The translations under genes and the position numbers were made by a program. From Zunongwangia sp. HGR-M22 (GTDB taxonomy: Bacteria; Bacteroidota; Bacteroidia; Flavobacteriales; Flavobacteriaceae): a stretch of DNA of 64,000 nucleotides. This document shows, piece by piece, positions 43,797-62,886 of the stretch. The DNA lies in the NCBI RefSeq assembly GCF_027594425.1, contig NZ_CP115159.1:1-64000 (forward strand). The letters are read 5' to 3'. Numbering within the stretch: position 1 is the stretch's first letter; each line of letters opens with the position of its first letter. Below the pieces are notes generated by a model. That model was not told the origin of the DNA. It did not search any database and was given only the letters and a program-made list of their open reading frames with translations.

Positions 43797-43797
43797 T

Positions 43798-44928: not shown

Positions 44929-44940
44929 TTGCAATAAATA

Positions 44941-46049: not shown

Positions 46050-46058
46050 TTGTAACAT

Positions 46059-47426
46059 CTATATGTGTTTATAAACTATCTCCTCAAAATTTTTTAATGG
46101 TATAAGACTAATTAATGGTTCCTCCAACTTAATATATTTATATATTGAATTTAGATCGCTGTAATTTCGAATACTCAAAATGTCTTCTGTTCTAGGAATT
46201 AAACTAATGTAGTTCCTTCTGTAAAACGCTTTTATCGGCATTACAATATTGGGGTTATTGGATGAATGAGGTTCTATATTTTCATTCCAGGCTTTTTCAA
46301 ATTTATATTTCAATTCATCTATTGAAATTTTTATCTCTCTGTTTTCATTATAAATCCTGTATAAGCTAAGAAGTAGGATAATTTGATGTGGCGCAATCTT
46401 TCCTCTGGCTTTATCTCGTTTTAATCTTCTAATAAAGTTAGCGATGCCTGATTTTTCATTTTTAAATTCATGCTCTTCGTTACCAATATAAAATATCACT
46501 TCACTATGTCGTGGCTTTGAATAGGTGAAGTTTTTATCAAAATGGCAAATCCAATCGTATAAAATATTTACGATAAGTTCTTTTTTCAATTCCCAACTGC
46601 GGGGAGTTGGGACAGTTGTAGTGTTGGTTTGAATCCATCGTAAGACACTACCATATCTCATAGATTGTTCTTCTGCAATATTTTGCTTAAGAGCAATGAT
46701 GAATGGATGAGAATTGAATTTTAATCCTAATAATTGATCAAAATTATTTCTATCCAAACTGTCAGGTAATTCATATAGTGCTAAATCATGTGCAGCGTAT
46801 AATAATTCCTCATTAGTTGAGTTTTCTAGGCGCGAATAAGTGTTATAAAGATTATCGACTGTTCTGCTCATTGGCAAATCGGACAGTAAGAATTTATTTT
46901 GAAGTTTTTCTTCAAGACTTTTTATAATATATGGCTCTTGAGGCTCTTCAATTTTGCCAATCTTTTCAACCTGCGCTGCTATTTTGGAATATAGACTATC
47001 ATTTAAATACTGGCTCTCTTTTAAGATTTGGTTGAAATATTTAATGGTATTAAATTCGATTTTTTCCTTTAAACCATTTAGCTCATAATTAAACCTTCCG
47101 TTTTCACCAATACCTTTGTTTGTTATGTTTGCAGAACCAAATAATACGGAACCATTGTCATTCCACATTACTTTCATATGTAGACGTGTATTTCTGAATA
47201 GTGCAATTTGATTTTCCTGGCAATAATCGTAAACTTCGAGATCAGAAACTTCCTTGCAAAGGTCAAGAATTTCCCATCTCACAATGATTCGTTTTACATT
47301 TTTAGATCTGTTAATTTTTTTAATTTCATCTAGTTTTATATAAGCTGAAAAAATAGTAACTTTTTCATTAGAATCAACGAATTCTATCGCGCTAGATTCT
47401 AGGTTAGTTCCACTGATATATAACAT
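46059..47426 (-). CDS. PLD-family nuclease, restriction-endonuclease-like
   Basis: A 455-residue protein with one complete phospholipase-D HKD motif: H83, K85, D90 in HMKVMWND followed by GSAN (97-100) and an upstream strand VKRIIVRWEILDL. A single HKD motif per chain is typical of BfiI/NgoFVII-type endonucleases, which dimerise to form one metal-independent active site. The C-terminal 300 residues are not recognised and may carry DNA binding. It faces the deoxyribosyltransferase gene (9-base gap) and is divergent from the NERD helicase gene with only 36 bases between starts. A restriction role in the ssp-like cassette is inferred. Confidence 0.8.
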   Translation of the reverse strand: MLYISGTNLESSAIEFVDSNEKVTIFSAYIKLDEIKKINRSKNVKRIIVRWEILDLCKEVSDLEVYDYCQENQIALFRNTRLHMKVMWNDNGSVLFGSANITNKGIGENGRFNYELNGLKEKIEFNTIKYFNQILKESQYLNDSLYSKIAAQVEKIGKIEEPQEPYIIKSLEEKLQNKFLLSDLPMSRTVDNLYNTYSRLENSTNEELLYAAHDLALYELPDSLDRNNFDQLLGLKFNSHPFIIALKQNIAEEQSMRYGSVLRWIQTNTTTVPTPRSWELKKELIVNILYDWICHFDKNFTYSKPRHSEVIFYIGNEEHEFKNEKSGIANFIRRLKRDKARGKIAPHQIILLLSLYRIYNENREIKISIDELKYKFEKAWNENIEPHSSNNPNIVMPIKAFYRRNYISLIPRTEDILSIRNYSDLNSIYKYIKLEEPLISLIPLKNFEEIVYKHI

Positions 47427-47462
47427 TCGGACGGTTTGTTTTAATAAAAATATCTATAATAA

Positions 47463-49100
47463 ATGATTTATCCAGAATTTTTTCCGGAAGAAAGAAATAA
47501 TGAATTTTCTGAAAAGAAAGTTTTTGAGAGATTAAAAAGTATTTCTGAAAAATACGATGTCTTTTACTCTAAGCGATTTGTAACCGATGGAGTTGGTAAA
47601 AAATCTGAATTCGAAATCGATTTTATAATAGCAGATCCTTGTAAGTCAATTGTTTGTTTAGAGGTAAAAGGAGGAATGATCAATTATGACGGGGTTTCGG
47701 ATAAATGGTATCAAAATAGTCAACGAATGAATAAAAGACCAGACTCTCAAGCAAGTTCAGCTGCGCATTCTCTTGCCAATAATTATAAAAGTTTAATTAC
47801 TGATATGCCCGTTGGTTGGGGTTTATGCTTTCCTGATTGTTCAATTGCCAATAAAAATTCTTTACCCAGTGCCATTCATAAAGATCAATTAATTGATCAA
47901 GACCAGCTACACTATATAGCAGATTCTTTACCGTACCTTTTTGATTTTATTAAGCAGCAGAATCCGTCAAGAAATGGGGTAAGGAAATGGCAATATGAAA
48001 AATTTAAAAGCTTGTTGCTACGAGGAATCGGTTTTGTTCAAATCTTAAGTACCAGGATAAAATACGATGAACAAAGATTTGTTGAGCTTACGGATTATCA
48101 ATTAGGTTTATTCCAACGAGCCACATCCAATAAAAATATTGTGACAAAAGGGCCAGCTGGATCTGGTAAAACTATAGTTGCAAAGACCTTAGCAAAGGAT
48201 TTTCTAGCGGATGGTAAAACTGTACTTTTTTTATGTTTTAATCGAACACTTGCGAATAAAATTAGATATGAGTTTGATAGGAATCAAGAGGGTTTAGAGG
48301 TGAAAACTTTCCATTCGTTCGCAAGAAACATTATTGAGAAATTTGATCCTGATTGGTGGAGTGAAAATTCAAGTAAGGAAGAAGAGTTCTGGAATCTTGA
48401 GGTTCCGATGAAATTAGAGGAGTATATAAATCTTGGAGAGCAAAAGTTTGATGTTCTAATCATAGATGAAGGTCAAGATTTTAAAGAATTTTGGTACGAG
48501 ATATTATTCAATCAGATTAAAGATGAGGGAAAAAAATTTATCTTTTTAGATGCAATGCAAAATATATTTAAGCACTATTCTACTATACCTAATTCTATTA
48601 ATTTCTTTCATTATGAATTACCTGAAAATTGTCGAAATACGCAGAATATTATTAAATATCTTTCTAAGCATTCAGGGTCTGAAATAGAATATTTTGAGAA
48701 AACCCCAATTGGTTCGAAAGTAGAAATAAGATCATTTAATGATAAAGATGAAAATTTGAGGTTTTTGCGGGATGAAATTTCATCTCTATTAAAACAAGAG
48801 AATATTGATCCTGCACAAATTCTTATTCTTTTGAATTCTAAGAAGGCAGATAGCTCTATTTCAGAATTGGATACTATAGATGAACTACCATTGAGGTCTT
48901 TGGATAACAAAGCTAGGTTTCAAAAAAACACTATAAACTATACAACAATAAATACTTTCAAAGGATTGGAGGCAGATATAGTATTTATTTTGGATTCGCA
49001 TCTAATCGATGAAAAAAATAAACCCGAGAAGCTTTATACTGAAGCTTCTCGGGCTAGGCATAAATTATATAATTATTCTATAAATAAATCTTCAATGTAA
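47463..49100 (+). CDS. NERD nuclease-domain protein fused to UvrD-like helicase
   Basis: A 545-residue protein. The N-terminal NERD domain (about 10-130) has the PD-(D/E)xK pattern D53 in EIDFII and E67-x-K69 in CLEVKGG. A superfamily 1 helicase follows, with Walker A GPAGSGKT (230-237), DEGQDFKEFW as Walker B region, and a C-terminal INTFKGLEADIVF. NERD-helicases occur in defence islands and mobile elements and could process broken phage DNA. Its 3' end overlaps the opposing GHKL gene by 28 bases, an unusually tight convergent arrangement. Confidence 0.85.
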   Translation: MIYPEFFPEERNNEFSEKKVFERLKSISEKYDVFYSKRFVTDGVGKKSEFEIDFIIADPCKSIVCLEVKGGMINYDGVSDKWYQNSQRMNKRPDSQASSAAHSLANNYKSLITDMPVGWGLCFPDCSIANKNSLPSAIHKDQLIDQDQLHYIADSLPYLFDFIKQQNPSRNGVRKWQYEKFKSLLLRGIGFVQILSTRIKYDEQRFVELTDYQLGLFQRATSNKNIVTKGPAGSGKTIVAKTLAKDFLADGKTVLFLCFNRTLANKIRYEFDRNQEGLEVKTFHSFARNIIEKFDPDWWSENSSKEEEFWNLEVPMKLEEYINLGEQKFDVLIIDEGQDFKEFWYEILFNQIKDEGKKFIFLDAMQNIFKHYSTIPNSINFFHYELPENCRNTQNIIKYLSKHSGSEIEYFEKTPIGSKVEIRSFNDKDENLRFLRDEISSLLKQENIDPAQILILLNSKKADSSISELDTIDELPLRSLDNKARFQKNTINYTTINTFKGLEADIVFILDSHLIDEKNKPEKLYTEASRARHKLYNYSINKSSM

Positions 49101-50899
49101 TCATCTAAAGATATTGATAATGTATTTTTAAATTTTTTGAGATATTTGGTAATATTTCGGTCATCTGATTTGTTTGATATCTCTGCTTTAACCAAAGAAC
49201 AAATCAATAGCCGTATTGACCTAAGTTTCTTTAAATTTTCAGGTTTACTAGTGTCATCTTCTAATTTAGATATAAAGTAAATGTAAAAAGGATGATTATA
49301 ATTAATTTCAATCAAAGTCGCTATACCCGGAATATTTGTAAATGAATATAGGTCTGTTTCACCTAAATCGGAATAAACAAATATATATTTGTCACTGATA
49401 CTTAAGGCCCAATTTACTCGTGATTCGATTTCTTTACTAGTAAGGCTTTCATATCTTTCTTTAATCCAATCATATAGAAATTGTTTATTCTTATCTGTAG
49501 GTTTCTCTTCAGGTTTTTCGTCATGACCAGGTTCTGTAGGACCTATAGGGGTCTTATCAATGTCACCTTTTTTTCCTCCCTTTTCTTTATTATTTATTTG
49601 ATGGTATTGTGAATTTATCTCCTTTTTTAATGTAGATATATTGTTAGAGATAGTTTCTGAAATCCAGGTAAGTATTTCATGACTATCATTCTCTTCATCT
49701 GCATCAAGAAATTTAATATTAGAAGCTTGCTGCTTTTTATTGTCTATACCAATTATGGTGTCTAAAACTGGTTCTGTTTTGATCTCGACTGACCACCATC
49801 TTAAAGTCTGGTCAGAGACATCTCCAATAAATCCATAATCCCCATTATCAATCTCTCTGTTAGCCCTAACTATAGAAATGTTGTTATATCCTCTTGTGAA
49901 TGGAATATTACGCTTTTTGTAAGTTTTTCCAAAGCTAGTGTCTCCTGGATTATGAATAGTTTCTCTATATCTTTCCTCTAGCTTGACGTGTGAAAAGGCG
50001 ATCTCAACCTTTGTTTTGACTTTCTCTAATTGATTATGAGAATTTGGAATTTCAATTTCAAATTCTTTTTCCTCAATTCTTCCTAAAAGTTTATTCGTTG
50101 GATGATTGAAATTTTTAAATTCATCCTCCATTTGCGTATTTGGCATCAAGAACATTGGATCAAAAGGTTTTACCTCTCGAATGGATTGAGCCAAGTTTAA
50201 ATCATAATTTTTTCCATTAAAATCATAAACTAAAACATTCAATTTAGTTTTTGTTAATTGCTCATTATTACTTTGAAAACCAGATAAATAATATCTGAAA
50301 ATTCTTCCCGCTAGACGATTAATGTTTTCAACTAATAATCGAATAGTTTTAGGTCTTATGTTGTTAGGATCCACCCACCTAACAATTGTACCCGTGTTTG
50401 AAAGCTTATAGTCTGTTTTATGGAACAATTCAATATCAATCGAATTAGATTCTTCTACTTCGGGTAGATATGGTTCTTGAGTTAAGTGAATTTCATTTAG
50501 GTCTATATAGTTATATAATAACTTTGAATCTTTTTTGGTGTAAACCTCTACTCTTTGTGTTTGGGATATTGATGCATTGGGTAGACCTTGACCGTATTTC
50601 CCCAATCCCTTTTTTGCACCTCCTCTTGTTCCACTATTCATCATTAAGGCTTTGTCAAAGGTATTTCTATCCATACCTTCTCCGTTATCTACAATTAACA
50701 ACTCAGAAATTGTGGATGAGCTTTTATTTGTGTTATTAACTATTATAACATCAATATTGTCCGCACCTGCCTGGATGCTATTATCTATTATCTCAGCGAT
50801 AGCATATACTGAGTTTTTATATCCGTTATTTTGTAGGTCTAAAATATTTGCCGTACCCATTAGCGGACGGCGTACTTTTGTTTCAATCATTATCTCCAA
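49073..50899 (-). CDS. GHKL (HSP90/MORC-like) ATPase
   Basis: A 608-residue protein with the Bergerat ATP-binding fold: N-box E36, D39, N40 in EIIDNSIQAGA; G1 DNGEGMD at 71-77; G2 GLGKYGQGLPNAS near 98-110. A charged linker (about 440-485, KEKGGKKGDIDKTPIGPTEP) separates this from a C-terminal domain of unknown type. MORC/MutL-type ATPases in prokaryotic restriction systems are thought to act as DNA clamps with helicases and nucleases. Its start overlaps the upstream SF2 helicase by 10 bases and its end overlaps the convergent NERD helicase by 28 bases. Confidence 0.85.
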   Translation of the reverse strand: MEIMIETKVRRPLMGTANILDLQNNGYKNSVYAIAEIIDNSIQAGADNIDVIIVNNTNKSSSTISELLIVDNGEGMDRNTFDKALMMNSGTRGGAKKGLGKYGQGLPNASISQTQRVEVYTKKDSKLLYNYIDLNEIHLTQEPYLPEVEESNSIDIELFHKTDYKLSNTGTIVRWVDPNNIRPKTIRLLVENINRLAGRIFRYYLSGFQSNNEQLTKTKLNVLVYDFNGKNYDLNLAQSIREVKPFDPMFLMPNTQMEDEFKNFNHPTNKLLGRIEEKEFEIEIPNSHNQLEKVKTKVEIAFSHVKLEERYRETIHNPGDTSFGKTYKKRNIPFTRGYNNISIVRANREIDNGDYGFIGDVSDQTLRWWSVEIKTEPVLDTIIGIDNKKQQASNIKFLDADEENDSHEILTWISETISNNISTLKKEINSQYHQINNKEKGGKKGDIDKTPIGPTEPGHDEKPEEKPTDKNKQFLYDWIKERYESLTSKEIESRVNWALSISDKYIFVYSDLGETDLYSFTNIPGIATLIEINYNHPFYIYFISKLEDDTSKPENLKKLRSIRLLICSLVKAEISNKSDDRNITKYLKKFKNTLSISLDDYIEDLFIE

Positions 50900-52509
50900 A
50901 AATTATTAAATGAGTTAAATAAATCGTCATAATCACCATGATTTAAGTTATCCTTAATCGTATATAATGTGTTTTGACTATTACCTTTTCCGTTGTAGGG
51001 TCCCCTCAAAATTCTACCTACCATTTGAGAATACATTACAATTGAGTCTATTGGGCGAGCAATAATGCAAACATTAGTCTTGGGTGCATCAAATCCAGTC
51101 GTTAAAACACCATAATTTAATAGTACATTCAAGTTTCCATCTCGAAAATCAGAAATGATAGCCTCCCTGTTTTTGGTGCCTTGGTCAATGATTTCTGAAA
51201 CTATGTCGTTATACTTTAGTATAGTTTTCAAAATTTTATTATGGTCTAGGCCACATGTAAAAACTAAAATTTTTTCATTTTTTTCTACATGTTCCTTGAT
51301 TATGTTTATGATACTAGCATTTCTTTTTGGATCTTTAGTTAATGTTTTAAGGGTGGATTTTTTAAATTTAAATCTTCCTCCTTGAAAATCAGAAATACCA
51401 TTACTGATCGAAGTTTGAGACACAATATCGTTTCTCTCTATTTTTGCTAAAAATTTGCGTTTAACCAAATAATCTATAGGCTTATCAATGGTTGAATAGT
51501 ATTCATCCATTAAAGTAATTTTATTGTTATCGTAATACTTAGACAATCCATAATTTTTTACCGATTCATCTTTTGAGCCTGATCCTGGCGTAGCTGTAAG
51601 GCCAATTAGATTTACGGCATTATTTTGGACGAAATAATCTAGGGCCTTGATCCACTGAGATGCAATAGATCTATGGGCTTCATCTACAACTACCAAGTAA
51701 TTATCATTTCTAATTTTTTCCCATATCGGAGTTTTGTAATTAATAAGTAATTTTTGAATAGATGTGAAAATTATTGCCGAATCGTCTAAAATACTTGGGT
51801 TGATATTATGATGACCGTAAAAATGACCAAAGGAAATATTATTAGTGCCTTTTTTATTATATATAGATTTTAAGGTTTCATATGCTTGTATACATAGTTC
51901 TTCTGACTGGGCTACCCACAAGATTTTAAGCTTTTCATTTAATAGTGTGAAACTGGAATGCAATCGTATAAAATCAATAATTATTTCTGCTGCAGTCCTA
52001 GTTTTACCTGCACCTGTCGGCATATGAATAAGAAATTTCTTCTTATTTCTATATATTAAGTTTATAACTTTACGTCGAATTCTTTCTTGGTAATCATGTA
52101 AAGTTGTGTCGCATTCAGAATTTAATTGAAGCTTGTATTCTATAGTTGGTGTCTCAGGTAATTTTAAATCATAATAATCTATTAGACAATCTCTCAACTT
52201 ATTATCGGATAATTGTTCTGAATGGATTTGAATAACGTCCTGAGTTATTTGATCAATAAGATTTTTATTGAATAACTTTAAATCATTTATAAGTTTTTTA
52301 TTATATATAATATTAGGGAATTCCGATATTAATATTTCATTTAAATCAATATCATCGGTAGAAAATATTTCATGATATTTTGATATACCCTCTATGAAAT
52401 CTTTACCGAGGTAAGTTAATTTTCTACCCTGTGGGATATGATTTAAAAGATCATTAATTTTTATCTTCTGACTATTATTAGAAACTGATCCTAAGTACTT
52501 TTTCTGCAT
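50890..52509 (-). CDS. Superfamily 2 DEAD/DEAH-box helicase
   Basis: A 539-residue protein with an unrecognised N-terminal 130 residues, then helicase motifs: Q/Ia-like DYQERIRRKV, Walker A MPTGAGKT (163-170), DEAH at 276-279, LTATPG, and motif VI-like QMVGRILRGPYNGKG. This pattern is of the type III restriction-subunit/DEAD-type helicases that translocate on double-stranded DNA. It overlaps the cysteine desulfurase gene by 32 bases and the GHKL gene by 10, so the three are one translationally coupled unit. Confidence 0.88.
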   Translation of the reverse strand: MQKKYLGSVSNNSQKIKINDLLNHIPQGRKLTYLGKDFIEGISKYHEIFSTDDIDLNEILISEFPNIIYNKKLINDLKLFNKNLIDQITQDVIQIHSEQLSDNKLRDCLIDYYDLKLPETPTIEYKLQLNSECDTTLHDYQERIRRKVINLIYRNKKKFLIHMPTGAGKTRTAAEIIIDFIRLHSSFTLLNEKLKILWVAQSEELCIQAYETLKSIYNKKGTNNISFGHFYGHHNINPSILDDSAIIFTSIQKLLINYKTPIWEKIRNDNYLVVVDEAHRSIASQWIKALDYFVQNNAVNLIGLTATPGSGSKDESVKNYGLSKYYDNNKITLMDEYYSTIDKPIDYLVKRKFLAKIERNDIVSQTSISNGISDFQGGRFKFKKSTLKTLTKDPKRNASIINIIKEHVEKNEKILVFTCGLDHNKILKTILKYNDIVSEIIDQGTKNREAIISDFRDGNLNVLLNYGVLTTGFDAPKTNVCIIARPIDSIVMYSQMVGRILRGPYNGKGNSQNTLYTIKDNLNHGDYDDLFNSFNNFWR

Positions 52510-53533
52510 TTTTTATTTTTAATGCGTTTAAAACGTGAGATTGTTGGATAATTTCAGAATTACAAGCACTACCGGTAGATGCTAAAAATTCTTTGGATTT
52601 CATCATTAAAAATTCATCGGCTTCAAAATTATTTAAAGTAATACTAAGAATGTGAGGAGCTGTTTCAATATCCTTAAAATTCACTATGCCGATTGCATTT
52701 GCCGTAAAATGTTTTTCCAGTTCTTCCTTTTTAGTTTTTAAGGAGAGAAAATTTTCTTTAAATTCAGACTTCGCTATTTCACAAGCTTTACCAAGTCCAA
52801 TAATTAATGGGCTATTGTAAGTGCCTCCTCTTAGACCTTTTTCTTGTCCTCCTCCATGAATAAGTGGAGTAATCTCAATTTCAGGTTTCTTATATAGAAC
52901 TCCTATTCCTTTAGGACCATATAATTTGTGTCCACTAAAGCAAAGCATGTCAACATAAATTTCTTGAAGATCCACAGGAATTTTTCCTATAGCTTGAGTC
53001 GCATCTGAAAAGAAGGTGATATTGGTTGATTGGGCGATTTTGCCAATTTCCTTGATTGGCTGAATTATACCAGTCTCATTATTCACCCACATTATGCAAA
53101 TAAGGAAAGTGTTTTCTTGAATACTGGTTTTTAAATCTTCTAAATCAATTAAGCCATTTTTATCTACATCAAGATATGTTACTTCTATGCCTTTTGTTTC
53201 TAAATACTCGCAAGTATTTAAAACAGCCTTATGTTCAGTTTTAACGGTAATTATATGATTCCCCTTACAAGAATTGGCTTCGACAAATCCTTTCAATGCG
53301 AGGTTGATGGATTCAGTTGCACCTGATGTGAAAATGATTTCGTCCTCGAAACAATTCAGAAGACTAGACACTTGACGTCGAGATTTTTCAATAGCTTTTT
53401 TTGCAATTTTCCCAAATTCGTGTTGGCTCGAAGCATTACCATATAATTCCGAAAAATAAGGAAGCATTTCTTTTATAACACGATGATCAACTTTTGTAGT
53501 TGAAGCATTATCGTAATAAATTGGATCAATCAC
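52478..53533 (-). CDS. sspA: Cysteine desulfurase (SspA/DndA/IscS-type)
   Basis: A 351-residue PLP enzyme opening MIDPIYYDNASTTKVD. The PLP lysine is K203 in SGHKLYGPKG and the catalytic cysteine is C324 in STGSACNSE. It removes sulfur from L-cysteine as a persulfide; here it would feed the PP-loop protein for DNA phosphorothioation. The C-terminus stops at VLRISF, roughly 25-30 residues earlier than typical IscS proteins, and the helicase gene starts inside its last codons (32-base overlap). It is on the opposite strand to the sspBCD-like genes. Confidence 0.88.
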   Translation of the reverse strand: MIDPIYYDNASTTKVDHRVIKEMLPYFSELYGNASSQHEFGKIAKKAIEKSRRQVSSLLNCFEDEIIFTSGATESINLALKGFVEANSCKGNHIITVKTEHKAVLNTCEYLETKGIEVTYLDVDKNGLIDLEDLKTSIQENTFLICIMWVNNETGIIQPIKEIGKIAQSTNITFFSDATQAIGKIPVDLQEIYVDMLCFSGHKLYGPKGIGVLYKKPEIEITPLIHGGGQEKGLRGGTYNSPLIIGLGKACEIAKSEFKENFLSLKTKKEELEKHFTANAIGIVNFKDIETAPHILSITLNNFEADEFLMMKSKEFLASTGSACNSEIIQQSHVLNALKIKNAEKVLRISF

Positions 53534-53686: not shown

Positions 53687-53935
53687 TTATTCGTTATTAA
53701 ATAACTGGAATACTTCTACTTTTAGTTCCTTAGCTATCTTAAATAATGTTTCAAAAGTAGGATTTGTATTTCCTCGTTCAATTTCTCCAATTGTTTTTTT
53801 TGCATTTCCTGTTCTTAATCCTAATTCTTCTTGCGAAATAGGCTTATTTGTTTCTGGATTGATGACTTTTTTTCTGAGTTCAGAAATTCTTAATCCTAGT
53901 GCTTTCTTCTCTTGTATGAGCTTTTTATCTGACAT
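53687..53935 (-). CDS. XRE-family transcriptional regulator
   Basis: An 82-residue Cro/C1-type helix-turn-helix protein. I chose the inner ATG (complement at 53933-53935, MSDKKLIQEKK) rather than one at 53977, because the longer start would lie inside a long palindrome that looks like an operator. The HTH is visible as ISQEELGLRTGNAKKTIGEIERGNTNPTFETLFKIAKEL. It heads the minus-strand unit with the sspA-like, helicase and GHKL genes and probably controls the defence cassette. Confidence 0.88.
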   Translation of the reverse strand: MSDKKLIQEKKALGLRISELRKKVINPETNKPISQEELGLRTGNAKKTIGEIERGNTNPTFETLFKIAKELKVEVFQLFNNE

Positions 53936-53964
53936 CGGATTAAAAGTCCCATTTTCTAATATAA

Positions 53965-53992
53965 AAAAAGGATACATATATGTATCCTTTTT
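53965..53992. promoter_or_regulatory. 28-base perfect palindrome upstream of the XRE gene, candidate autoregulatory operator
   Basis: A perfect palindrome centred between 53978 and 53979, with core GGATACATATATGTATCC and flanking A5/T5. It sits 30 bases before the chosen XRE start. The half-site GGAnACA also occurs in the palindrome at 39621-39644. A hairpin terminator is an alternative reading, but no gene would use it. Confidence 0.6.
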
Positions 53993-54386
53993 AATTTTTT
54001 TACTATATTCGAATTATATAAGCTTACATGTAAGGAATTTTCATATCCTATTTGCTAATTATTATTTTAACCAATTAGAAGGAAAAATCATATTAAGAAG
54101 AAAAATTAGAATAACCTGGTATAACCAAACCTATAAGAAGAAACAAACCACCGTTTAATGAATTAGCCATTTAGTCTAGGCTAGAAGCCAGAAAGCCTTC
54201 CCTTAAGCTCATAGCCTTTCCCACTTGTTTATCGGCAATTTGGGAAGGCCTATGGTTTCGAACTAGATAAAAACAAACAAAAACCACAGCATACCATGAA
54301 AATTATAGACCATACCGAAAGACTCGTATTAGTTATTAATACAGTATCCATTCGAAGATCCGATCCAACATTTAAACCTATTGGCT
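53993..54386. other. Intergenic region between the defence cassette and the sigma factor gene
   Basis: About 390 bases without a gene. It contains TCTAGGCTAGA (perfect 11-base palindrome near 54176) and an 8-base inverted repeat GCCTTCCC (54195-54202)/GGGAAGGC (54242-54249) with a 39-base spacer. The first arm matches the end of the guide RNA scaffold further downstream. It presumably holds the promoter of the sigma/dCas12f operon, which I could not place. Confidence 0.45.
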
Positions 54387-55166
54387 ATGGAACGTGAGTT
54401 TAAACTTTTAAAAGAAGGGCATCCCGATGCTATGGAGTTTATTTATGCCAGATATCGCCAAAAACTCTTTTGGATGGGGAAGAATTTAATTAAAGATGAA
54501 TTTGTTATTGAGAACATTCTTCAGGATACGTTCCTTAAATTATGGGAAAAAAGAGATCATATAGAAGATCCTAAACATATTCTCTTCTTCCTTCTGTATG
54601 TCATGAAACGGCAGTGTATCTATTACTATTGCCGCCCAAGGAATAGGTTTCACCGGAATATGAACAGACTGGAGTTTTTTCCAGGCTATCAGGAATATAT
54701 GCATGGATTTGACCCGGAGTCAGAAGATATGCATTTTCAGGATCAGGAGGCCGACCAGAAAGCCTTTGATCGGATAAGCCGTGTCTTTCCGTTGTTAAGT
54801 GCTGAAAGACGTCGTCTCATTGAACTCTGCATAAAATACGGTTTTCAATATAAAAACATTGCCCAGGTTATGGGAACCAGTATTACCTACACCAGTAACG
54901 AGGTGAAAAGAGCGATCGAGGATATTAAAAAAATTATCCATCAAGGGAACGATTTGGAAACCAAACCCAAACAGGTGGTTACGGTAAAACTACAGGGCAA
55001 GATGACAGAGGAGCAGGAAAAGGTATTACAACTGCGTAATGAAAAGCAGTATTCCTTTACGGCAATTGCTGAAGAACTGCAACTATCTCAAAAAGAAGTC
55101 CATAAAGAATTTATGGCCGCCTATAGGTTGCTACAGGAAAAACACCAACAACAACAATCGGCTTAA
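54387..55166 (+). CDS. Extended ECF-type sigma factor, partner of the nuclease-dead Cas12f
   Basis: A 259-residue protein; the ATG at 54387 is preferred to a TTG six bases upstream. Sigma region 2 spans about 5-82 (FIYARYRQKLFWM...VIENILQDTFLKLWEKRD), and region 4 about 132-183 (LLSAERRRLIELCIKYGFQYKNIAQ...NEVKRAI, shortened to its landmarks). Unlike ordinary ECF sigmas of about 180 residues, it has a further C-terminal HTH (about 203-252, MTEEQEKVLQLRNEKQYSFT...IAEELQLSQKEVHKEF). It directs RNA polymerase to promoters. It ends 2 bases before the TnpB/Cas12f-like gene, so the two are co-expressed; I infer that the latter's guide RNA recruits it. Confidence 0.88.
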   Translation: MEREFKLLKEGHPDAMEFIYARYRQKLFWMGKNLIKDEFVIENILQDTFLKLWEKRDHIEDPKHILFFLLYVMKRQCIYYYCRPRNRFHRNMNRLEFFPGYQEYMHGFDPESEDMHFQDQEADQKAFDRISRVFPLLSAERRRLIELCIKYGFQYKNIAQVMGTSITYTSNEVKRAIEDIKKIIHQGNDLETKPKQVVTVKLQGKMTEEQEKVLQLRNEKQYSFTAIAEELQLSQKEVHKEFMAAYRLLQEKHQQQQSA

Positions 55167-55168
55167 TC

Positions 55169-56269
55169 ATGGGAAAAGAAACTATAAAACTCACCCGAAA
55201 AATCCAGTTGCTAGTGGACGCCCCTACCAAAGAAGAAAGAAAAGAGGCTCTTGATACCCTATACCGTTGGCAGAATCGAAGCTATAGGGCGGGTAACCTT
55301 ATTGTTACCCACCAGTATATTCAGGAAATGATTAAGGATTTTTTTTATTTATCTGAAGGGATAAAATATAGGCTGGTAGATGATAAGAAAGCTGAAGATG
55401 GCATGCTTAATCGTTCCAGGAGCAATTGTACCTACCGGGTGGTATCCGATCGTTTTAAAGGTGAGGTCCCAACCAACATTTTAGCCTATATGAATTATAA
55501 TATCATGAATAATTTCAGTAAAAACTTGGTGCAATATAGGAGGGGAGAGCGCTCGCTAGCAAATTATAGAAGGGATATTCCTTTTCCATTTGGAACGATA
55601 GGGATTCATGGATTATCCTATAAAAAAGAAAAAAAAGCATTTTGCTTTCGTTTATTTTCTATTCCTTTTAAAACCTATTTAGGGAAGGATTATACGGATA
55701 AACGAAGCTTGCTGGAACAGGTAGTAGCCGGCCAAATCAAACTTTGCGCTTCTAAAATTCAACTGAAAAAAGGAAAAATTTATTGGTTAGCCGTATTTGA
55801 AGTTGCGAAAGAAAAGCATTGCCTAAAACCGGAAATAATTGCAGAAGCCTCCCTATCTCTTGAATATCCTATTATAGTGAAATCTGGTAAAGCAAAGCTT
55901 AATATTGGTAGTAGAGAAGAGTTTTTATATAGAAGATTAGCCATTCAGGCTGCTTTAAAAAGAGTGCAAAATGCTACTGCCTATTGTAGATCAGGAAAAG
56001 GATATAAGCGCAAAACAAAAGCAGTAGAAAGATTTCACGAAAAAGAAAGAAATTATGTAGATAACCGTTTGCATGTATACAGTCGGATGCTTATTGATTT
56101 TTGTATCAAACAGCAAGCAGGTACACTCATTTTAATAAATCAGGAAGATAAAATGGAGATCGCCAAAAAGGAAAATGGATTTGTTTTAAGGAATTGGAAT
56201 TATTATGAACTTATGACCAAAATAAAATATAAGGCTGAAAAAGCCGGAATTGAACTTATCGTGGATTAA
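55169..56269 (+). CDS. Nuclease-dead Cas12f/TnpB-like RNA-guided protein
   Basis: A 366-residue protein matching the Cas12f/TnpB layout: an N-terminal helical/wedge part (about 1-215), then a RuvC-like domain. Landmarks are the RuvC-I strand region ASLSLEYPIIVKSG (225-240), a helical bridge with EEFLYRRLAIQAALKRVQNA, the conserved KERNYVDNRLHVYSRMLIDF (292-311), and RNWNYYELMTKIKYKAEKAG (341-360). The RuvC-I Asp is replaced (S228 by my alignment), the RuvC-II Glu position reads I/N in LILINQED (322-327), and the chain ends at IELIVD before the zinc ribbon and RuvC-III Asp. It should bind RNA and DNA without cutting. Three guide-RNA-like units follow its stop codon. Confidence 0.87.
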   Translation: MGKETIKLTRKIQLLVDAPTKEERKEALDTLYRWQNRSYRAGNLIVTHQYIQEMIKDFFYLSEGIKYRLVDDKKAEDGMLNRSRSNCTYRVVSDRFKGEVPTNILAYMNYNIMNNFSKNLVQYRRGERSLANYRRDIPFPFGTIGIHGLSYKKEKKAFCFRLFSIPFKTYLGKDYTDKRSLLEQVVAGQIKLCASKIQLKKGKIYWLAVFEVAKEKHCLKPEIIAEASLSLEYPIIVKSGKAKLNIGSREEFLYRRLAIQAALKRVQNATAYCRSGKGYKRKTKAVERFHEKERNYVDNRLHVYSRMLIDFCIKQQAGTLILINQEDKMEIAKKENGFVLRNWNYYELMTKIKYKAEKAGIELIVD

Positions 56270-56276
56270 AATTAAA

Positions 56277-56379
56277 AATGAGGGTGCTTGTACACCCGTA
56301 AGGTGAGGTCTCAATAGCACTCACTAAATGCCCGCAGCATATACAACATGCCTTCCCCTTAGAGTTGAGAGGAAATAAA
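56277..56379 (+). ncRNA. Guide RNA unit 1 (scaffold plus guide)
   Basis: Scaffold 56277-56357 and guide-like segment from 56358 (CTTAGAGTTGAGAGGAAATA and on). Predicted pairs: GGGTG (56282-56286) with CACCC (56293-56297), and GTGAG (56303-56307) with CTCAC (56320-56324). TTGTA (56288-56292) can pair with TACAA (56342-56346), and AAGG (56300-56303) with CCTT (56351-56354), suggesting pseudoknots as in Cas12f and omega RNAs. It begins 8 bases after the dCas12f stop, same strand. The 3' boundary is approximate. Confidence 0.82.
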
Positions 56380-56606: not shown

Positions 56607-56708
56607 AATGAGGGTGCTTGTAAACCCGTAAGGTGAGGTTCTATTTACGCTCACTAAATGCGCGCAGCATATACAACAAAAGCCTTCCCGCGATGAGATA
56701 AACTGAGA
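56607..56708 (+). ncRNA. Guide RNA unit 3 (different guide)
   Basis: Scaffold 56607-56689 is identical to unit 2 over 83 bases, but the following segment is different: GCGATGAGATAAACTGAGA (56690-56708). Downstream, similarity to units 1 and 2 partly resumes (ATGATnAACAAAA-like), which brackets a variable segment of about 19-22 bases. This is what a guide exchange or divergence would look like. Confidence 0.82.
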
Positions 56709-57625: not shown

Positions 57626-57848
57626 AATCGTGTAAGCATCAAAAAAAGATAACAGCTATACGGCACTATGGGAAGTAAATCAAAACAGTTCAATATGAAA
57701 TCAACAGCGACATATCTATTCGGAAGGGAAACTAAAAAATCAAAAAATGGAAAAACGCTTCCGGATATAATAAGTAAATCATTTTTTCAAACAAGTTCAA
57801 TGTATGTGTAACCGTCTGCCTCCGGGTAGACCTCTAAATCTTTTTATT

Positions 57849-58187
57849 ATGAGTACTATTAGAAACAAAGTTCAGTTAATCGGAAATGTGGGAAACACTC
57901 CCGAAATTACTAATCTTGACACCTCCAAAAAAGTGGCGCGTTTAAGTCTTGCTACTAATGACTATTACCGAAACCAAAAAGGGGAATCCGTTCAGGATAC
58001 TCAATGGCATAATCTTGTTGCTTGGAATAAACAGGCCGAGATTATCGAAAACTATGTGCCGAAAGGAAAGGAAATTGCCATCGAAGGCAAACTGATTTCC
58101 AGATCTTACGAAGATAGGGAAGGGAATAAACGTTATGTGACCGAAATCTTAGTGAGTGAAATTCTACTCTTAGGTAGTAAGGATTAA
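57849..58187 (+). CDS. ssb: Single-stranded DNA-binding protein
   Basis: A 112-residue OB-fold protein. The ATG at 57849 is chosen because it begins the conserved MSTIRNKVQLIGNVGNTPEI; an in-frame ATG 45 bases upstream gives an unlikely leader. Landmarks are TQWHNLVAWNKQAEI and YVPKGKEIAIEGKL. It is short (112 versus about 150-180 for chromosomal SSBs) and lacks the acidic C-terminal tip, as is common for SSBs of plasmids and conjugative elements. It probably protects transferred single strands. Confidence 0.93.
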   Translation: MSTIRNKVQLIGNVGNTPEITNLDTSKKVARLSLATNDYYRNQKGESVQDTQWHNLVAWNKQAEIIENYVPKGKEIAIEGKLISRSYEDREGNKRYVTEILVSEILLLGSKD

Positions 58188-58202
58188 TACAAGCCTTAGA
58201 AA

Positions 58203-58233
58203 AACAAGGGCGGAACCCCTTCGCGCCCTTGTT
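58203..58233 (+). terminator. Hairpin downstream of ssb
   Basis: Perfect 10-base arms AACAAGGGCG (58203-58212) and CGCCCTTGTT (58224-58233) with an 11-base loop, followed by GCTTTTG. The T-run is short, but position 15 bases after the stop supports termination. Confidence 0.75.
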
Positions 58234-58351
58234 GCTTTTGAGATAATCTTAAGCCTAAAGCTTAGGTCTATAAATTTAATCAATATCATTAAAAAAGGGT
58301 GTATCCTCTCCAGAATTAACACCCCCTTTATTTAACCTTAATCTATTAATT

Positions 58352-58801
58352 ATGTCTTCTAAAGTTAACGAAATAAAACTATGCTACAAAGACCGGATAA
58401 CAATTTCTAATTGTCCCAAAATTACCTGCTCCCAGGATGCAGCGAACCTTTACTATACCAATTGGGATAAAAACGAAATTCAATTACAGGAATCTTTTAA
58501 AGTGATGCTCCTGAATAATTCCAATATCGTTAAAGGGATTTGCCAAATCTCGACCGGTGGAATTACCGCAACCTTAGTGGATATGCGAATTATGTTTGCC
58601 CTAATTCTAAAAAGTCTTTCTACCGCAATTATTGTTTGCCATAACCACCCCTCAGGAAAACTACAGGCCAGCGAAGTCGATAAAAAACTGACCTCCAAGA
58701 TTCAAAAGGCCTGTGATTTTCTGGATATTAAACTACTAGATCACCTGATCATCAACAGCGAAGGAAATTACCTGAGCTTTGCCGATGAAGGAATTTTATA
58801 A
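58352..58801 (+). CDS. RadC-like JAB-domain protein
   Basis: A 149-residue protein with the JAB/MPN metalloprotease-like motif HNHPSGKLQASEVD and preceding STAIIVCHNHP, as in RadC. It lacks the N-terminal helix-hairpin-helix of chromosomal RadC (about 220 residues). Such short RadC-like proteins are frequent in conjugative elements and phages of Bacteroidota, and their function is not settled. It lies between two terminators, so it is transcribed alone. Confidence 0.92.
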   Translation: MSSKVNEIKLCYKDRITISNCPKITCSQDAANLYYTNWDKNEIQLQESFKVMLLNNSNIVKGICQISTGGITATLVDMRIMFALILKSLSTAIIVCHNHPSGKLQASEVDKKLTSKIQKACDFLDIKLLDHLIINSEGNYLSFADEGIL

Positions 58802-58823
58802 TACTTAATTACTTAAGAAAAAT

Positions 58824-58849
58824 AAAGGGAGCCCTAAAGCTCCCTTTTT
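58824..58849 (+). terminator. Terminator of the RadC-like gene
   Basis: Arms AAAGGGAGC (58824-58832) and GCTCCCTTT (58839-58847) with a 6-base loop, continuing into TTTTT. Confidence 0.9.
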
Positions 58850-59417
58850 GTATTATTCCATTTTGTAGGCTAATACAAATTAACGAAATAATGATTAGGC
58901 AGTACAAAACTAAAAGTTTAGTTTTAATAGATCTAAGGTTTACTGTTAAAATAACTAAGTTTTTAGTTCTAATGATTGTGTCTACTAAAAAACAATAATG
59001 CTGGAGGGGTTCAGCACATTCCCACTACATTTCGCAAAAGCTTTATTTCGGGAAAAGCGCTTCACGATAAAAGTCTTGGATCCCATCAAAGAAATTTAGA
59101 CCTCCATTACACGCACCGATGAAAAATCAGAAGGCTACATGGAATTCGAAATTTTTCGATGACGTCGGCCTGATCAAAATTCTTGAATTCTGTGTTCAAT
59201 TTTTGATCGATTTTTTCTTGCTGAACACTGAAAATCTGCCGTCGTAATTTTTTGAATTTCTCAGATTTCCCCGTTTTTGCTACAAATAGCAGCAATTCAT
59301 AGCAAATCAAATGTTGAATTCATATTATTTGTATTTATATGTTTTGTAAATTAAAGTGTTGATATATTGCTATTTATATGCCGTATTAATTACCGTATTT
59401 GACTTTCACTTTTTTGA

Positions 59418-59560
59418 TTCCCCGGATCATAATTGTCCGGGGAATTTTTCAATTCTAATTCTAATAATGCGCTTGGTGTAAACCAATACGTATGAAAATT
59501 TTGTCCCGTGTTCGGGACGAAATCGAATAGCAAGAGGGTAACACGTTTCACGGTGTTGTT
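59418..59560. other. Candidate origin of transfer (hairpin cluster)
   Basis: Four hairpins occur in about 140 bases just upstream of the mobilization genes: TTCCCCGGA/TCCGGGGAA (59418-59426, 59436-59444), TTGGT/ACCAA (59473-59477, 59482-59486), TTTTGTCCCG/CGGGACGAAA (59499-59508, 59513-59522, one wobble), and AACAC/GTGTT just after. Transfer origins usually carry such inverted repeats next to the relaxase operon. No nick site can be named from sequence. Confidence 0.5.
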
Positions 59561-59704
59561 CGATTTCTTAGGCGTCAAAAGCCCCGTTTTTCGGTGTGTT
59601 TTAAAATTTTTAGGCAGAAAAGTAGCCACCCCGATGGATACAATGCTCTAAAAACCCCCGAAAATACAGGAAGAGAATAGCCACTAAAACTAAAAAGACT
59701 AGCC

Positions 59705-60232
59705 ATGACCGCAAAATCCAGACTTCAGGTGAAAGCTCATACCGCTAATAGGTTTCGGGAGTTTTCAAAGAAAAACAATTCGAATCAGTCCCAAACTTTG
59801 GATCTGATTCTGGACTTTTTTGAGAAAAATAACCTCTCGCCTTTTGAAAGCTTGGTGCCCTCCAAAGTGAGCCTCGAGCAGCTTATCAAAAAAAGAATTG
59901 ATGCGGTGATCGCTATTCTGAAAAATATTGAAAAGACGCAAACAAAACCGGGATTCCTGATGCTGGAATTATTACTGGAAGGTCGCAACCTGCCAGCGGC
60001 ATCGATCAAAGAAAAAAAGCAAAAAGCTGTACCGGGTGAGCAAAGCCGAGAACAACTGGAATTGGAAATTGCCCGATTGCAGGAGACCTTAAAAGCTACC
60101 CAAAAGGATTTGGAATACCTGCTTCAACAGGTTGAAATTAAAGGGAATGCCTTTGGAGCGGATTACCTGAAACTGGATATCCCCAGAACGGAATTCGAGC
60201 AGTTTAAAATTGCGATAAAACGTAAAACTTAA
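59705..60232 (+). CDS. BfmA/BtgA-family mobilization accessory protein
   Basis: A 175-residue protein opening MTAKSRLQVKAHTANRFREF and continuing SKKNNSNQSQTLDLILDFFEKN, the small DNA-binding (ribbon-helix-helix-like) N-terminus typical of BfmA/BtgA mobilization proteins of Bacteroidota, followed by helices and a predicted coiled coil (about 112-150, EQSREQLELEIARLQETLKA). It likely binds oriT and loads the relaxase encoded 11 bases downstream. Its family is recognised from memory of such proteins. Confidence 0.85.
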   Translation: MTAKSRLQVKAHTANRFREFSKKNNSNQSQTLDLILDFFEKNNLSPFESLVPSKVSLEQLIKKRIDAVIAILKNIEKTQTKPGFLMLELLLEGRNLPAASIKEKKQKAVPGEQSREQLELEIARLQETLKATQKDLEYLLQQVEIKGNAFGADYLKLDIPRTEFEQFKIAIKRKT

Positions 60233-60243
60233 TAAAACTTAAG

Positions 60244-61269
60244 ATGTATATCACGATCTCCCCTCAAAAGCTTGGTGGCGCTTTTTCGCAAAGTGCAGGG
60301 GATTTTGTGAACTATCTGGAAAAAGAAAACCAGGGGAAAGATCCCTCGGAAAAGGAATTTTTCTTTAATCAACAGGAAGATGGAATCAAACCGTTTCAGG
60401 TGATCAAAGAGATTGATGGGAATACGGATCGACTGAAATTGAAAGAACCTAAATATTATTCGATCACTATTAATCCCAGCCGTTATGAATTACAACATAT
60501 TCAAAACAATCCTGAAAAACTTAAAGCTTTTGTTCGGGAAGCGATGAAGGAATATGCGAGTTCCTTTCACCGGGAAATAAACGGTCGGCCGGTTTCTATT
60601 GATGATATTAAATATTTCGCGAAAATTGAACAGGAGCGATCTTATAAGACGAATGATATCGCTATCCGGGAGAATAAGCCCTATTCGAAACAAATAGCAC
60701 ATCTCAAAAATGAGCTTCGAAAAGTAGCTCGAGGAGAGATGCCCGGAAATACTCAAAAAATAGAGAATGAGATTCAAAAACTGATCCGCGAGGCGCCATA
60801 CAAAATTAAAGGGCAGATGGTGGAACCGGGAATGAAAAAGGAAGGCCTGCAAAGTCATATCCATATTATTGTAAGCCGTAAAGATGCCTCCAACTCCTAT
60901 AGCCTGTCTCCGGGAAGTAAGTATAAGGCTTCCGAAGTGAAGATGCATGGGAAACTGGTGAAACGGGGTTTTGAACGGGATCGGTTTTTTCAGCATTCGG
61001 AAAAGGCTTTTGATAAAATGTTCCAATACAATCGCAACTATGTGGAAAGCTACTCAGCGAGAAAACTCCTGAGTAAAAACCCTAAACAATATTTTATGTC
61101 CTTAAGGAGTCTCGGAGTTAACGAGAAAAAACTTGCCTTTAAAATGATCCGACAAGCAGGAATGCAATTGCCTGCTTTACACCTGCCCCAAAGTAAAGTG
61201 GGGTTTGCGTATAAACAACTTAAAAAAATAATCGAAGCCGGTATTAAAGCTAGCTCTATCGGCTATTAA
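60244..61269 (+). CDS. MobB-type relaxase
   Basis: A 341-residue protein of the Bacteroidota MobB/DUF5712 type. The opening MYITISPQKLGGAFSQSAGDF, the KYYSITINPSRYEL strand, and the histidine motif SHIHIIVSRKD (about 207-217) are relaxase-like; a tyrosine in the N-terminal region (Y34 in FVNYLEKEN) could be the DNA-linked residue, as inference. It would nick oriT and pilot the strand into the recipient. It lies between the accessory protein and the coupling protein genes. Confidence 0.85.
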   Translation: MYITISPQKLGGAFSQSAGDFVNYLEKENQGKDPSEKEFFFNQQEDGIKPFQVIKEIDGNTDRLKLKEPKYYSITINPSRYELQHIQNNPEKLKAFVREAMKEYASSFHREINGRPVSIDDIKYFAKIEQERSYKTNDIAIRENKPYSKQIAHLKNELRKVARGEMPGNTQKIENEIQKLIREAPYKIKGQMVEPGMKKEGLQSHIHIIVSRKDASNSYSLSPGSKYKASEVKMHGKLVKRGFERDRFFQHSEKAFDKMFQYNRNYVESYSARKLLSKNPKQYFMSLRSLGVNEKKLAFKMIRQAGMQLPALHLPQSKVGFAYKQLKKIIEAGIKASSIGY

Positions 61270-61281
61270 AACCTATCAGTT

Positions 61282-62886
61282 ATGTTTAGCAATTTGTATA
61301 TTCTTACTTTTTTTATCACTGTATCAGTGATTATCTTCTATTTCAGCCTTAAAGTATCGACCTGGGGAAATGCCATTAATCTCGGCTATATTTTTACCCT
61401 CTTATTAATCAGCTTTTCAAAAGGTTTTGATTTTGATATGTTCGTGCTGGTGTGGACGCGTTTAGTGATGCCCCTTATGATCATTAATGCAATTATGTAT
61501 GAATTATTATTCCATGTTGGAAAAGGAAAACCGGAAAAACAATATGTCTTTCGGATGCCCCTTTCTTCGGGTTCAATGAAATTAAAAGATATCCGGCGCG
61601 GGGTGTCCATTATCGGGGCGGCAGGAAGTGGAAAGACCGAAAGTGTCGTGGCGCAATTTCTTAGACATTTTAGCCGTCATAGCTTTAGTGGGATTATTCA
61701 TGATTATAAAAATTTTGAACTCTCCAGAATTGCCTATCCCTTATTTAAAGAGAGTAAGCTCCCTTTTTACCTGATTTCTTTTGATCGGGTATTTCATAAA
61801 GTGAATCCCATTGCTCCACGTTATATGCTGGATGAAGAGAGTGTAAACGAAATTTCAAGGGTGCTGCTGGAAAATCTACTGGAAAAGAAAGAAAGTTCCT
61901 TTTCGGGAAGTTCGAAGTTTTTTAATGATGCTGCGGAAGGAATTATCGGGGGACTGATCTGGAAATTGAAAACAGATTATCCTCATTATTGTACGCTTCC
62001 TCATATGATTGCCATATTCCAACAATGTACTACCTATGAACTGGTGGAATTGTTGAGTTCTAATTTCACCTCAAAGGCGATGGCCAATGCTTTTATCAAT
62101 GGTGTGGAATCGGAACGCCAAACCGCAGCGGTTAAAAGTACTCTTTCTAATGCTTTTAAAAAGATTAGTACCCAACGGATCTTTATGGTGCTTTCTGAAG
62201 ATGAGATTCCACTGGATATTAATAATGCAGAAAATCCGGGAGTGATCTCCGTAGTGAATAATCCAAAATTCGAATCAGCCTATTCTCCTATCATCGCCAC
62301 TGTTATTCATAGCATCACCAAACAAATGAGTGTGCATGATCGTTTGGGTTCTTTTATTCTTATGGAAGAGGCTTCTACGATCCGACTACTGAATATGCAG
62401 CGTATTCCGGCTACCTTAAGAAGCTATAATATTTCGACAGTTTATGTCATCCAGGATAAGATCCAGAATGATATCCTATACGGTAGGGAAGCAGGAAAAG
62501 CCATTCTGAGTAATTTGTCTTACCAGTTCTTCGGAAAGGTGAACGATCCGGAAACCGCAAAATACTACGAAAGTTTTTTTGAGATCGTAAAGCGTAAAAG
62601 TATTAGCGTAAGTAAAAGTGATAACCTGAATTTTGATACCCGAACTACCAAAAGTGAACGCGAAGTGGCTAAGATCAGGGCAGATCTTTTCTTTCGATTA
62701 AAACCTGGACAGTTCGTAACTTTCTCAGACGGGAAAGATCGAAAGGTGAAATTCGCAGCTCCCCAATGGTCAAAAGAATTGCCTACGCCTAAACATGAAG
62801 TGACACCGGAAGAACTGGAATCGAATTTTCAGAAAATATACCGGGAGGTGAAAACGATTATCGCCACAGAAATTCAGAAGAAATGA
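61282..62886 (+). CDS. Type IV coupling protein (TraG/TraD/VirD4-like)
   Basis: A 534-residue inner-membrane ATPase with two or three N-terminal helices (about 1-80), Walker A GAAGSGKTES (around 110-119), and the FILMEEASTIRLLNMQ Walker B region, with a C-terminal acidic tail. Coupling proteins hand the relaxase-DNA complex to the type IV secretion channel. It ends overlapping the next start by 4 bases (ATGA). It is somewhat shorter than full TraG proteins (about 600-670). No other tra genes are in the window, so this could be a mobilizable element or the edge of a conjugative one. Confidence 0.9.
   Translation: MFSNLYILTFFITVSVIIFYFSLKVSTWGNAINLGYIFTLLLISFSKGFDFDMFVLVWTRLVMPLMIINAIMYELLFHVGKGKPEKQYVFRMPLSSGSMKLKDIRRGVSIIGAAGSGKTESVVAQFLRHFSRHSFSGIIHDYKNFELSRIAYPLFKESKLPFYLISFDRVFHKVNPIAPRYMLDEESVNEISRVLLENLLEKKESSFSGSSKFFNDAAEGIIGGLIWKLKTDYPHYCTLPHMIAIFQQCTTYELVELLSSNFTSKAMANAFINGVESERQTAAVKSTLSNAFKKISTQRIFMVLSEDEIPLDINNAENPGVISVVNNPKFESAYSPIIATVIHSITKQMSVHDRLGSFILMEEASTIRLLNMQRIPATLRSYNISTVYVIQDKIQNDILYGREAGKAILSNLSYQFFGKVNDPETAKYYESFFEIVKRKSISVSKSDNLNFDTRTTKSEREVAKIRADLFFRLKPGQFVTFSDGKDRKVKFAAPQWSKELPTPKHEVTPEELESNFQKIYREVKTIIATEIQKK

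What the first reader, a model, noticed from the sequence alone, without database searches (positions are those of the whole stretch)
55169..56269. Loss of RuvC catalytic residues and absence of the zinc ribbon
The chain keeps RuvC landmarks (YVDNRLHVYSRMLIDF, NWNYYELMTKIKYKAEKAG) but the RuvC-I Asp is Ser, the RuvC-II Glu position reads I/N in LILINQED, and translation stops at IELIVD just where the zinc ribbon (TSxxCxxCG) and RuvC-III Asp should begin. All three catalytic positions are lost while the frame is intact, which fits selection for binding without cutting.
Basis: partly seen in the sequence, partly recalled or inferred. Interest (0 to 1): 0.82.

Follow-up and report, generated by a model that had tools for sequence, protein, structure and literature searches.

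The report
Dead Cas12f paired with sigma factor
This bacterial gene encodes a Cas12f-like protein that has lost its DNA-cutting parts and sits next to a sigma factor and its own guide RNAs, so it most likely switches genes on by RNA guidance, as a recently solved relative does, and here it seems aimed at its own control region.

Summary
ORF 55169-56269 is an intact 366-aa Cas12f homolog. The RuvC-I Asp is Ser228, the ungapped RuvC-II Glu position is Ile323 (a gapped alignment can place Glu326 there), and the chain ends before the zinc ribbon and RuvC-III. This is fixed in the clade, not a local truncation: all 91 intact copies examined, this one included, end at 364-378 aa, none has Asp at 228, and dN/dS is about 0.10. 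An ECF sigma gene ends 2 bp upstream, and three tandem guide-RNA scaffolds follow. Both proteins match a solved complex: 9n9c 'Nuclease-deactivated Cas12f' (E 9e-173) and 9n9q chain C 'RpoE' (E 2e-87). It is a new, Zunongwangia-type member of the known dCas12f-sigma system. Beyond this, many guides in relatives match a covarying structured leader upstream of their own sigma gene; copies of that leader also precede SusC/RagA genes. Here two of three guides instead match a different leader: G+11 nt, unique in 4.04 Mb, 196 bp before the sigma start. This suggests a private self-targeting loop.

The parts
53687..53977 (-). small divergent HTH (Cro/C1 type) regulator gene upstream of the leader
   Evidence: HTH_3 E 4.5e-11; similar small divergent genes upstream of other leader copies
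54191..54202 (+). putative guide target: 5'-G plus 11 nt (AAAGCCTTCCC) shared with guides 2 and 3 (their bases 2-12)
   Evidence: only exact occurrence in 4.04 Mb; coordinates
54192..54249 (+). leader dyad GCCTTCCC ... GGGAAGGC containing the target; not the canonical leader type
   Evidence: folds; model R2 gives only 6.0 bits here
54387..55166 (+). ECF sigma factor, 259 aa (ATG 54387; alternative TTG 54381)
   Evidence: 9n9q chain C 'RpoE' E 2.2e-87 over 4-256; TIGR02985, TIGR02937
55169..56269 (+). nuclease-dead, C-terminally shortened Cas12f (dCas12f), 366 aa
   Evidence: 9n9c_A E 9.2e-173 over 1-365; PADLOC Cas12f E 6.8e-52; Foldseek and VIA top hits 9n9m, 9n9c
55850..55852 (+). codon of Ser228 at the RuvC-I Asp position
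56135..56137 (+). codon of Ile323 at the ungapped RuvC-II Glu position (Glu326 codon 56144-56146 is the gapped alternative)
56280..56347 (+). guide-RNA scaffold 1 (three hairpins)
   Evidence: model R1, 86.5 bits
56348..56367 (+). guide 1 (ATGCCTTCCCCTTAGAGTTG; 3' end assumed)
   Evidence: no exact G+10 nt match in the own genome
56444..56511 (+). guide-RNA scaffold 2
   Evidence: R1, 81 bits
56512..56531 (+). guide 2 (AAAAGCCTTCCCCTTAGAGT; 3' end assumed)
56610..56677 (+). guide-RNA scaffold 3
   Evidence: R1, 81 bits
56678..56697 (+). guide 3 (AAAAGCCTTCCCGCGATGAG; 3' end assumed)

Best explanation
A dCas12f-sigma RNA-guided transcription operon. The dead Cas12f binds one of three guide RNAs encoded just downstream, finds DNA that matches the guide behind a 5'-G, opens an R-loop and does not cut. 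The neighbouring ECF sigma is recruited to it and brings RNA polymerase, which starts transcription downstream of the R-loop. Shown here: protein homology, loss of catalytic parts, sigma coupling, conserved guide scaffold and guide-leader match. Inferred from the solved homolog and from recalled abstracts: sigma recruitment, polymerase recruitment, promoter-independent starts, the 5'-G. Inferred here: the first address of this copy is its own leader, so the operon activates itself; its other targets are unknown.
For: Both proteins match chains of one solved system. 9n9c_A reads the same as the Allomuricauda (Flagellimonas) taeanensis protein L029 (searches compared by eye). A sigma homolog lies upstream on the same strand in 98 of 103 loci, 92 of them with at most 33 bp between the matched ends; the other five loci (L018, L019, L020, L025, L026) hold only part of the dCas12f gene. 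Three-hairpin scaffold: 98.7% of 525 cells paired, 16 compensatory cells against a shuffled mean of 4.1. The scaffold model finds three copies in the own genome, all here. Guide-leader match of G+9 nt or more in 24 of 89 loci, shuffled mean 0.03, opposite strand 0. The window's G+11 nt site is unique in the genome. dN/dS about 0.10.
Against: No expression, binding or transcription data exist here. 65 of 89 loci have no leader match of G+9 nt or more, and A. taeanensis itself has none; its guide, searched as G+19 nt with up to 3 mismatches, found only its own gRNA copy. The rule required the 5'-G, so it does not test the TAM; in Chryseobacterium the guide itself begins with G, so the register is ambiguous. 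The match in the window is only 11 nt and skips the first base of guides 2 and 3; guide 1 shares only 8 nt; no second genomic target was found at high stringency. Congeners L015 and L024 share the leader type but not the guides. Shuffles were mononucleotide and the loci are related, so the 24 are not independent events.
Confidence: 0.88

Rival explanations
1. Dead Cas12f acting as an RNA-guided repressor (roadblock), like TldR, with the sigma only a neighbour.
For: Dead effectors can repress; the target lies in the operon's own leader, where a block would give negative feedback. Phage-contig dead Cas12f L141, L142, L144 and L146 show no sigma-like ORF among the neighbours I read by eye.
Against: The sigma gene lies upstream on the same strand in 98 of 103 loci and a homolog is a chain of the solved complex 9n9q.
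Confidence: 0.07
2. A locally truncated or decaying nuclease (pseudogene in progress).
For: The C-terminus is missing relative to active Cas12f. Broken copies do occur in relatives (L018, L026; L094; L098).
Against: 91 of 91 intact copies share the end point and the loss at 228; dN/dS 0.10; none of the 91 has an in-frame ribbon; no PF07282 match at E 0.001 in the genome.
Confidence: 0.02
3. The 'guide' 3' tails pair with leader RNA in trans (sponge or antisense) rather than address DNA.
For: The canonical leader is strongly selected as a structure with G-U pairs tolerated, and the guide is complementary to one arm of its apical hairpin. The window's guides are likewise complementary to one arm of a different dyad.
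Against: The homolog has a solved dCas12f-gRNA-DNA complex with a partial R-loop (9n9m).
Confidence: 0.1

Closest known systems
dCas12f-gRNA-sigmaE system of Allomuricauda (Flagellimonas) taeanensis, PDB 9n9c, 9n9m, 9n9o, 9n9q (9n9c and 9n9m released 2025-12-24)
   Same: dCas12f 70% identical over full length with the same missing parts; homologous sigma partner; same gRNA scaffold family, three hairpins ending ATACAAC
   Different: three tandem scaffolds here against one found there; different guides; a different leader type upstream; a putative self-target, while the A. taeanensis guide has no match at its own leader
Active Cas12f nucleases (Al3Cas12f 9nzo/9nzr, CnCas12f 8hr5, AsCas12f 7wju, UnCas12f1 7c7l)
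   Same: same overall fold, VIA Z 16.8-22.4 for these entries
   Different: active Cas12f keeps GVDLG, Glu, zinc ribbon and RuvC-III (seen here in L147, L148, L152, L154); this one lacks Asp, ribbon and RuvC-III
TldR (TnpB-derived dead repressors; passages of PMC13418256 seen)
   Same: natural loss of RuvC catalysis with kept RNA-guided binding
   Different: this one scores best against Cas12f, is coupled to a sigma factor, and is expected to activate

Membership tests
dCas12f-sigma RNA-guided transcription system | full-length homology to nuclease-deactivated Cas12f 9n9c | tested here: met
   E 9.2e-173, residues 1-365; structure hits
dCas12f-sigma RNA-guided transcription system | linked ECF sigma homologous to the sigma chain of the complex | tested here: met
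   9n9q_C E 2.2e-87; sigma stop ends at 55166, dCas12f ATG at 55169
dCas12f-sigma RNA-guided transcription system | RuvC-I Asp and RuvC-III/zinc ribbon lost | tested here: met
dCas12f-sigma RNA-guided transcription system | RuvC-II Glu lost | tested here: inconclusive
   I323 ungapped, E326 with a 3-residue gap
dCas12f-sigma RNA-guided transcription system | cognate gRNA scaffold downstream | tested here: met
   R1 matches at 56280, 56444, 56610; the A. taeanensis scaffold is a row of the same model
dCas12f-sigma RNA-guided transcription system | guide-matched genomic target with 5'-G TAM (TAM recalled, not from a call) | tested here: inconclusive
   54191-54202 fits and is unique, but the match is 11 nt and untested by experiment
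dCas12f-sigma RNA-guided transcription system | sigma and RNA polymerase recruitment, guide-set transcription start | not testable with these tools
   needs ChIP-seq and RNA-seq
active Cas12f nuclease | Asp-Glu-Asp RuvC site plus zinc ribbon | tested here: not met
TldR | derived from TnpB rather than Cas12f | tested here: inconclusive
   Cas12f models and structures score best, but no tree was built
TldR | no sigma partner; represses flagellin or similar targets (defining features partly recalled) | tested here: not met
   sigma partner present; ten flanking ORFs scanned, none flagellin

The most novel reading that the evidence does not exclude
These systems address a class of covarying structured leaders rather than isolated promoters. 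One conserved guide would reach the sigma-dcas12f operon and, in the same genome, SusC/RagA operons that carry the same leader and a divergent HTH gene. In the window's Zunongwangia lineage guide and leader have changed together, turning the operon into a private self-activating switch cut off from the canonical SusCD leader that the same genome still carries at 1209775-1209887.
Probability: 0.35. Interest if true: 0.68.

Novelty: new member of a known kind. Interest (0 to 1): 0.45.

Why it matters
It adds a Zunongwangia-type member to a natural, programmable gene-activation system. It also supplies a test case: the guide appears to change together with its own leader, so autoregulation and target choice can be tested by exchanging short sequences in a harmless laboratory host. 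If the leader finding is right, it links RNA-guided transcription to the choice of outer-membrane SusC receptors.

Tried and rejected
Pseudogene or local truncation: rejected on 91 of 91 intact copies. Orphan guide scaffolds elsewhere in the own genome: none found (150 of 1203 first-look candidates were scored). Further targets of the own guides: the 20-nt search at up to 3 mismatches gave guides 1 and 2 themselves and one site with mismatches within the first 11 nt; G+AAAGCCTTCCC gave only the leader; GATGCCTTCCC gave none. Second copies of the window's leader in the own genome: next best E 0.19 over 38 bases. A. taeanensis guide: only its own gRNA. Rfam: nothing for the locus at E 1, three tRNAs and nothing else above gathering scores in nine sources, two far sub-threshold hits around the own-genome leader copy. 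The pattern search for leader copies allowed 2 mismatches and had a background: the reversed pattern gave up to 4 hits per strand and genome, so I rely on model R2 for counts.

Literature: no paper on dCas12f with a sigma factor appeared in the rows listed (4 of 4; 20 of 852; 5 of 5; 20 of 85; 0; 20 of 34; 8 of 142). One search on SusC leaders (9 of 9 listed) showed none on this element by title and abstract start. Most lists were capped and the library lacks most subscription papers and preprints, so this is no evidence of absence. I saw passages of PMC13418256 and PMC13186708, no whole paper. The papers I recall (Hoffmann, Wiegand, Sternberg and colleagues; Xiao, Chang and colleagues, bioRxiv 2025) were not held.

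Circularity: R2 was built from leaders of 14 of the 22 system-bearing genomes later searched. All 22 matched, 8 of which had given no row to the model. Against 5 of 22 genomes without the protein, p is 7.7e-8 for all 22 and 2.2e-4 for those 8. So the leader is associated with the system but not confined to it.

Full report
Observation. The ORF at 55169-56269 + is open and encodes 366 aa. Pfam sees only traces, below its cut-offs, of OrfB_IS605 and of the first 20 of 60 positions of the Cas12f zinc-ribbon model. NCBIfam and PADLOC place it with TnpB/Cas12f. Aligned with solved Cas12f proteins, 'EASLS' stands where active enzymes have 'GVDLG', so the RuvC-I Asp is Ser228. In 91 intact copies, the window's included, no Asp occurs there. 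The chain ends at GIELIVD. Active relatives from viral contigs (L147, L148, L152, L154) continue with TSQxCxxCG and NAD.NA. For RuvC-II the ungapped reading gives Ile323, the last residue of a predicted strand 317-323, but a 3-residue gap places Glu326 there. Glu326 is E 85, D 2, Q 4 of 91, and the dead phage forms L141, L142, L144 and L146 have K or T at that column. I treat that site as undecided. Two of three catalytic acids are gone beyond doubt.

Not a truncation. All 91 intact copies end at 364-378 aa. Against the Zunongwangia atlantica copy dN is 0.026 and dS 0.254; for the sigma gene 0.051 and 0.288 (Nei-Gojobori counts of my own script). The gene is single in its genome. It was found in 20 of 397 sampled genomes of the family and 8 of 395 of the phylum, the window's own counted in both, and in 76 loci of genome contigs.

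What it is. phmmer against the PDB gives 9n9c_A, 'Nuclease-deactivated Cas12f', E 9.2e-173 over residues 1-365. The ORF 2 bp upstream, 54387-55166, gives 9n9q_C, 'RpoE', E 2.2e-87. 9n9c_A reads the same as the A. taeanensis protein in locus L029 (by eye). An AlphaFold model from an alignment of 29 sequences (mean pLDDT 78.7, pTM 0.54) has 9n9m and 9n9c as best structural matches. A sigma homolog lies upstream on the same strand in 98 of 103 loci; the other five hold only part of the dCas12f gene. I recall, but could not read here, that this system was described as RNA-guided transcription with a minimal 5'-G TAM and starts set by the R-loop; neither paper is in the library.

Guide RNAs. Three tandem repeats with 164-166 bp spacing follow the gene. 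Each carries a 68-nt scaffold of three hairpins that is conserved across the clade. On 35 scaffolds 98.7% of cells pair, with 16 compensatory cells against 4.1 in shuffles. The model finds three copies in the own genome, all here. Rfam has no match at E 1.

Where the guides point. Of 94 loci with a scaffold found, 73 have a guide beginning (G)GCGTGGG. The same letters lie upstream of the own sigma gene in many of them. With a strict rule (G plus at least 9 exact nt) 24 of 89 loci match, 171-232 bp before the sigma start, against a shuffled mean of 0.03 and none on the other strand; 65 of 89 do not, some because guide or leader differs by one base or the leader was not found there. The site lies in an about 113-nt element with strong covariation in 28 aligned copies: 34 pairs, 98.3% of cells paired, 95 compensatory cells against 30.1 shuffled, G-U pairs tolerated. 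The element recurs in the same genomes. Of 13 extra copies fetched, 8 have a SusC/RagA gene over the curated cut-off downstream, six as the first large ORF and two behind another ORF. Two others were tested and were not SusC; three were not tested. A small divergent ORF lies 147-217 bp upstream in all 13. Of ten tested, nine have an HTH domain. The window has the same arrangement with an HTH_3 gene at 53687-53977.

The window's difference. Its leader does not match the model (6.0 bits). It is a Zunongwangia type found once in this genome and in two congeners, one of which has two clear copies and a weaker third, with a GCCTTCCC/GGGAAGGC dyad. Guides 2 and 3 begin AAAAGCCTTCCC. GAAAGCCTTCCC occurs once in 4.04 Mb, at 54191-54202, 196 bp before the sigma start codon. 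The one canonical leader found in the genome, 1209775-1209887, precedes a SusC gene (TIGR04056 E 1.6e-215) followed by a 464-aa lipoprotein-like ORF that I read as SusD; the own guides do not match it. I read this as joint change of guide and leader. It could also be coincidence in a short match: the congeners L015 and L024 share the leader type but not the guides, and Z. atlantica's first guide matches its leader over only G+8 nt, which speaks against strict co-change.

Verdict. Ordinary in kind, because the system type has been solved in a relative. It is a clean new member with an unusual address, and the leader deserves a separate look.

Noticed in passing
G000:C1:1209775-1209887 (L188:2276-2388) and copies in relatives: About 113-nt covarying structured leader (model R2), without a convincing Rfam match, upstream of SusC/RagA genes and of sigma-dcas12f operons; in 22 of 22 genomes with the system (14 of them gave rows to the model, 8 did not) and 5 of 22 without.
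   Followed up: partly
window 53687-53977 and L188-L200 upstream of each leader: A small divergent gene, mostly Cro/C1-type HTH of differing families, stands 147-217 bp upstream of the fetched leader copies (13 of 13 have the ORF; 9 of 10 tested have an HTH).
   Followed up: partly
L141, L142, L143, L144, L145, L146 (IMG/VR contigs): Viral-contig Cas12f relatives without a zinc ribbon; four aligned have Phe or Tyr at the RuvC-I Asp column. In those four (L141, L142, L144, L146) I saw no sigma-like neighbour by eye, and weak gRNA-like scaffolds lie beside them: possibly sigma-free dead Cas12f regulators.
   Followed up: partly
window 40572-53533: Defence-like cluster with SspC, SspD and SspA/DndA-like proteins, a NERD helicase and an HATPase, next to the dCas12f operon.
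   Followed up: no
window 57804-62886: Mobile-element genes downstream: an SSB-like ORF (read by eye), RadC, a DUF5712 protein and a TraG/VirD4-type coupling protein.
   Followed up: no
L003, L016, L017, L028, L038, L040, L072: Several relatives carry 2-4 tandem guide RNAs; in L003, L038, L040 and L072 one resembles the canonical guide and others do not, and targets of the others were not found.
   Followed up: no
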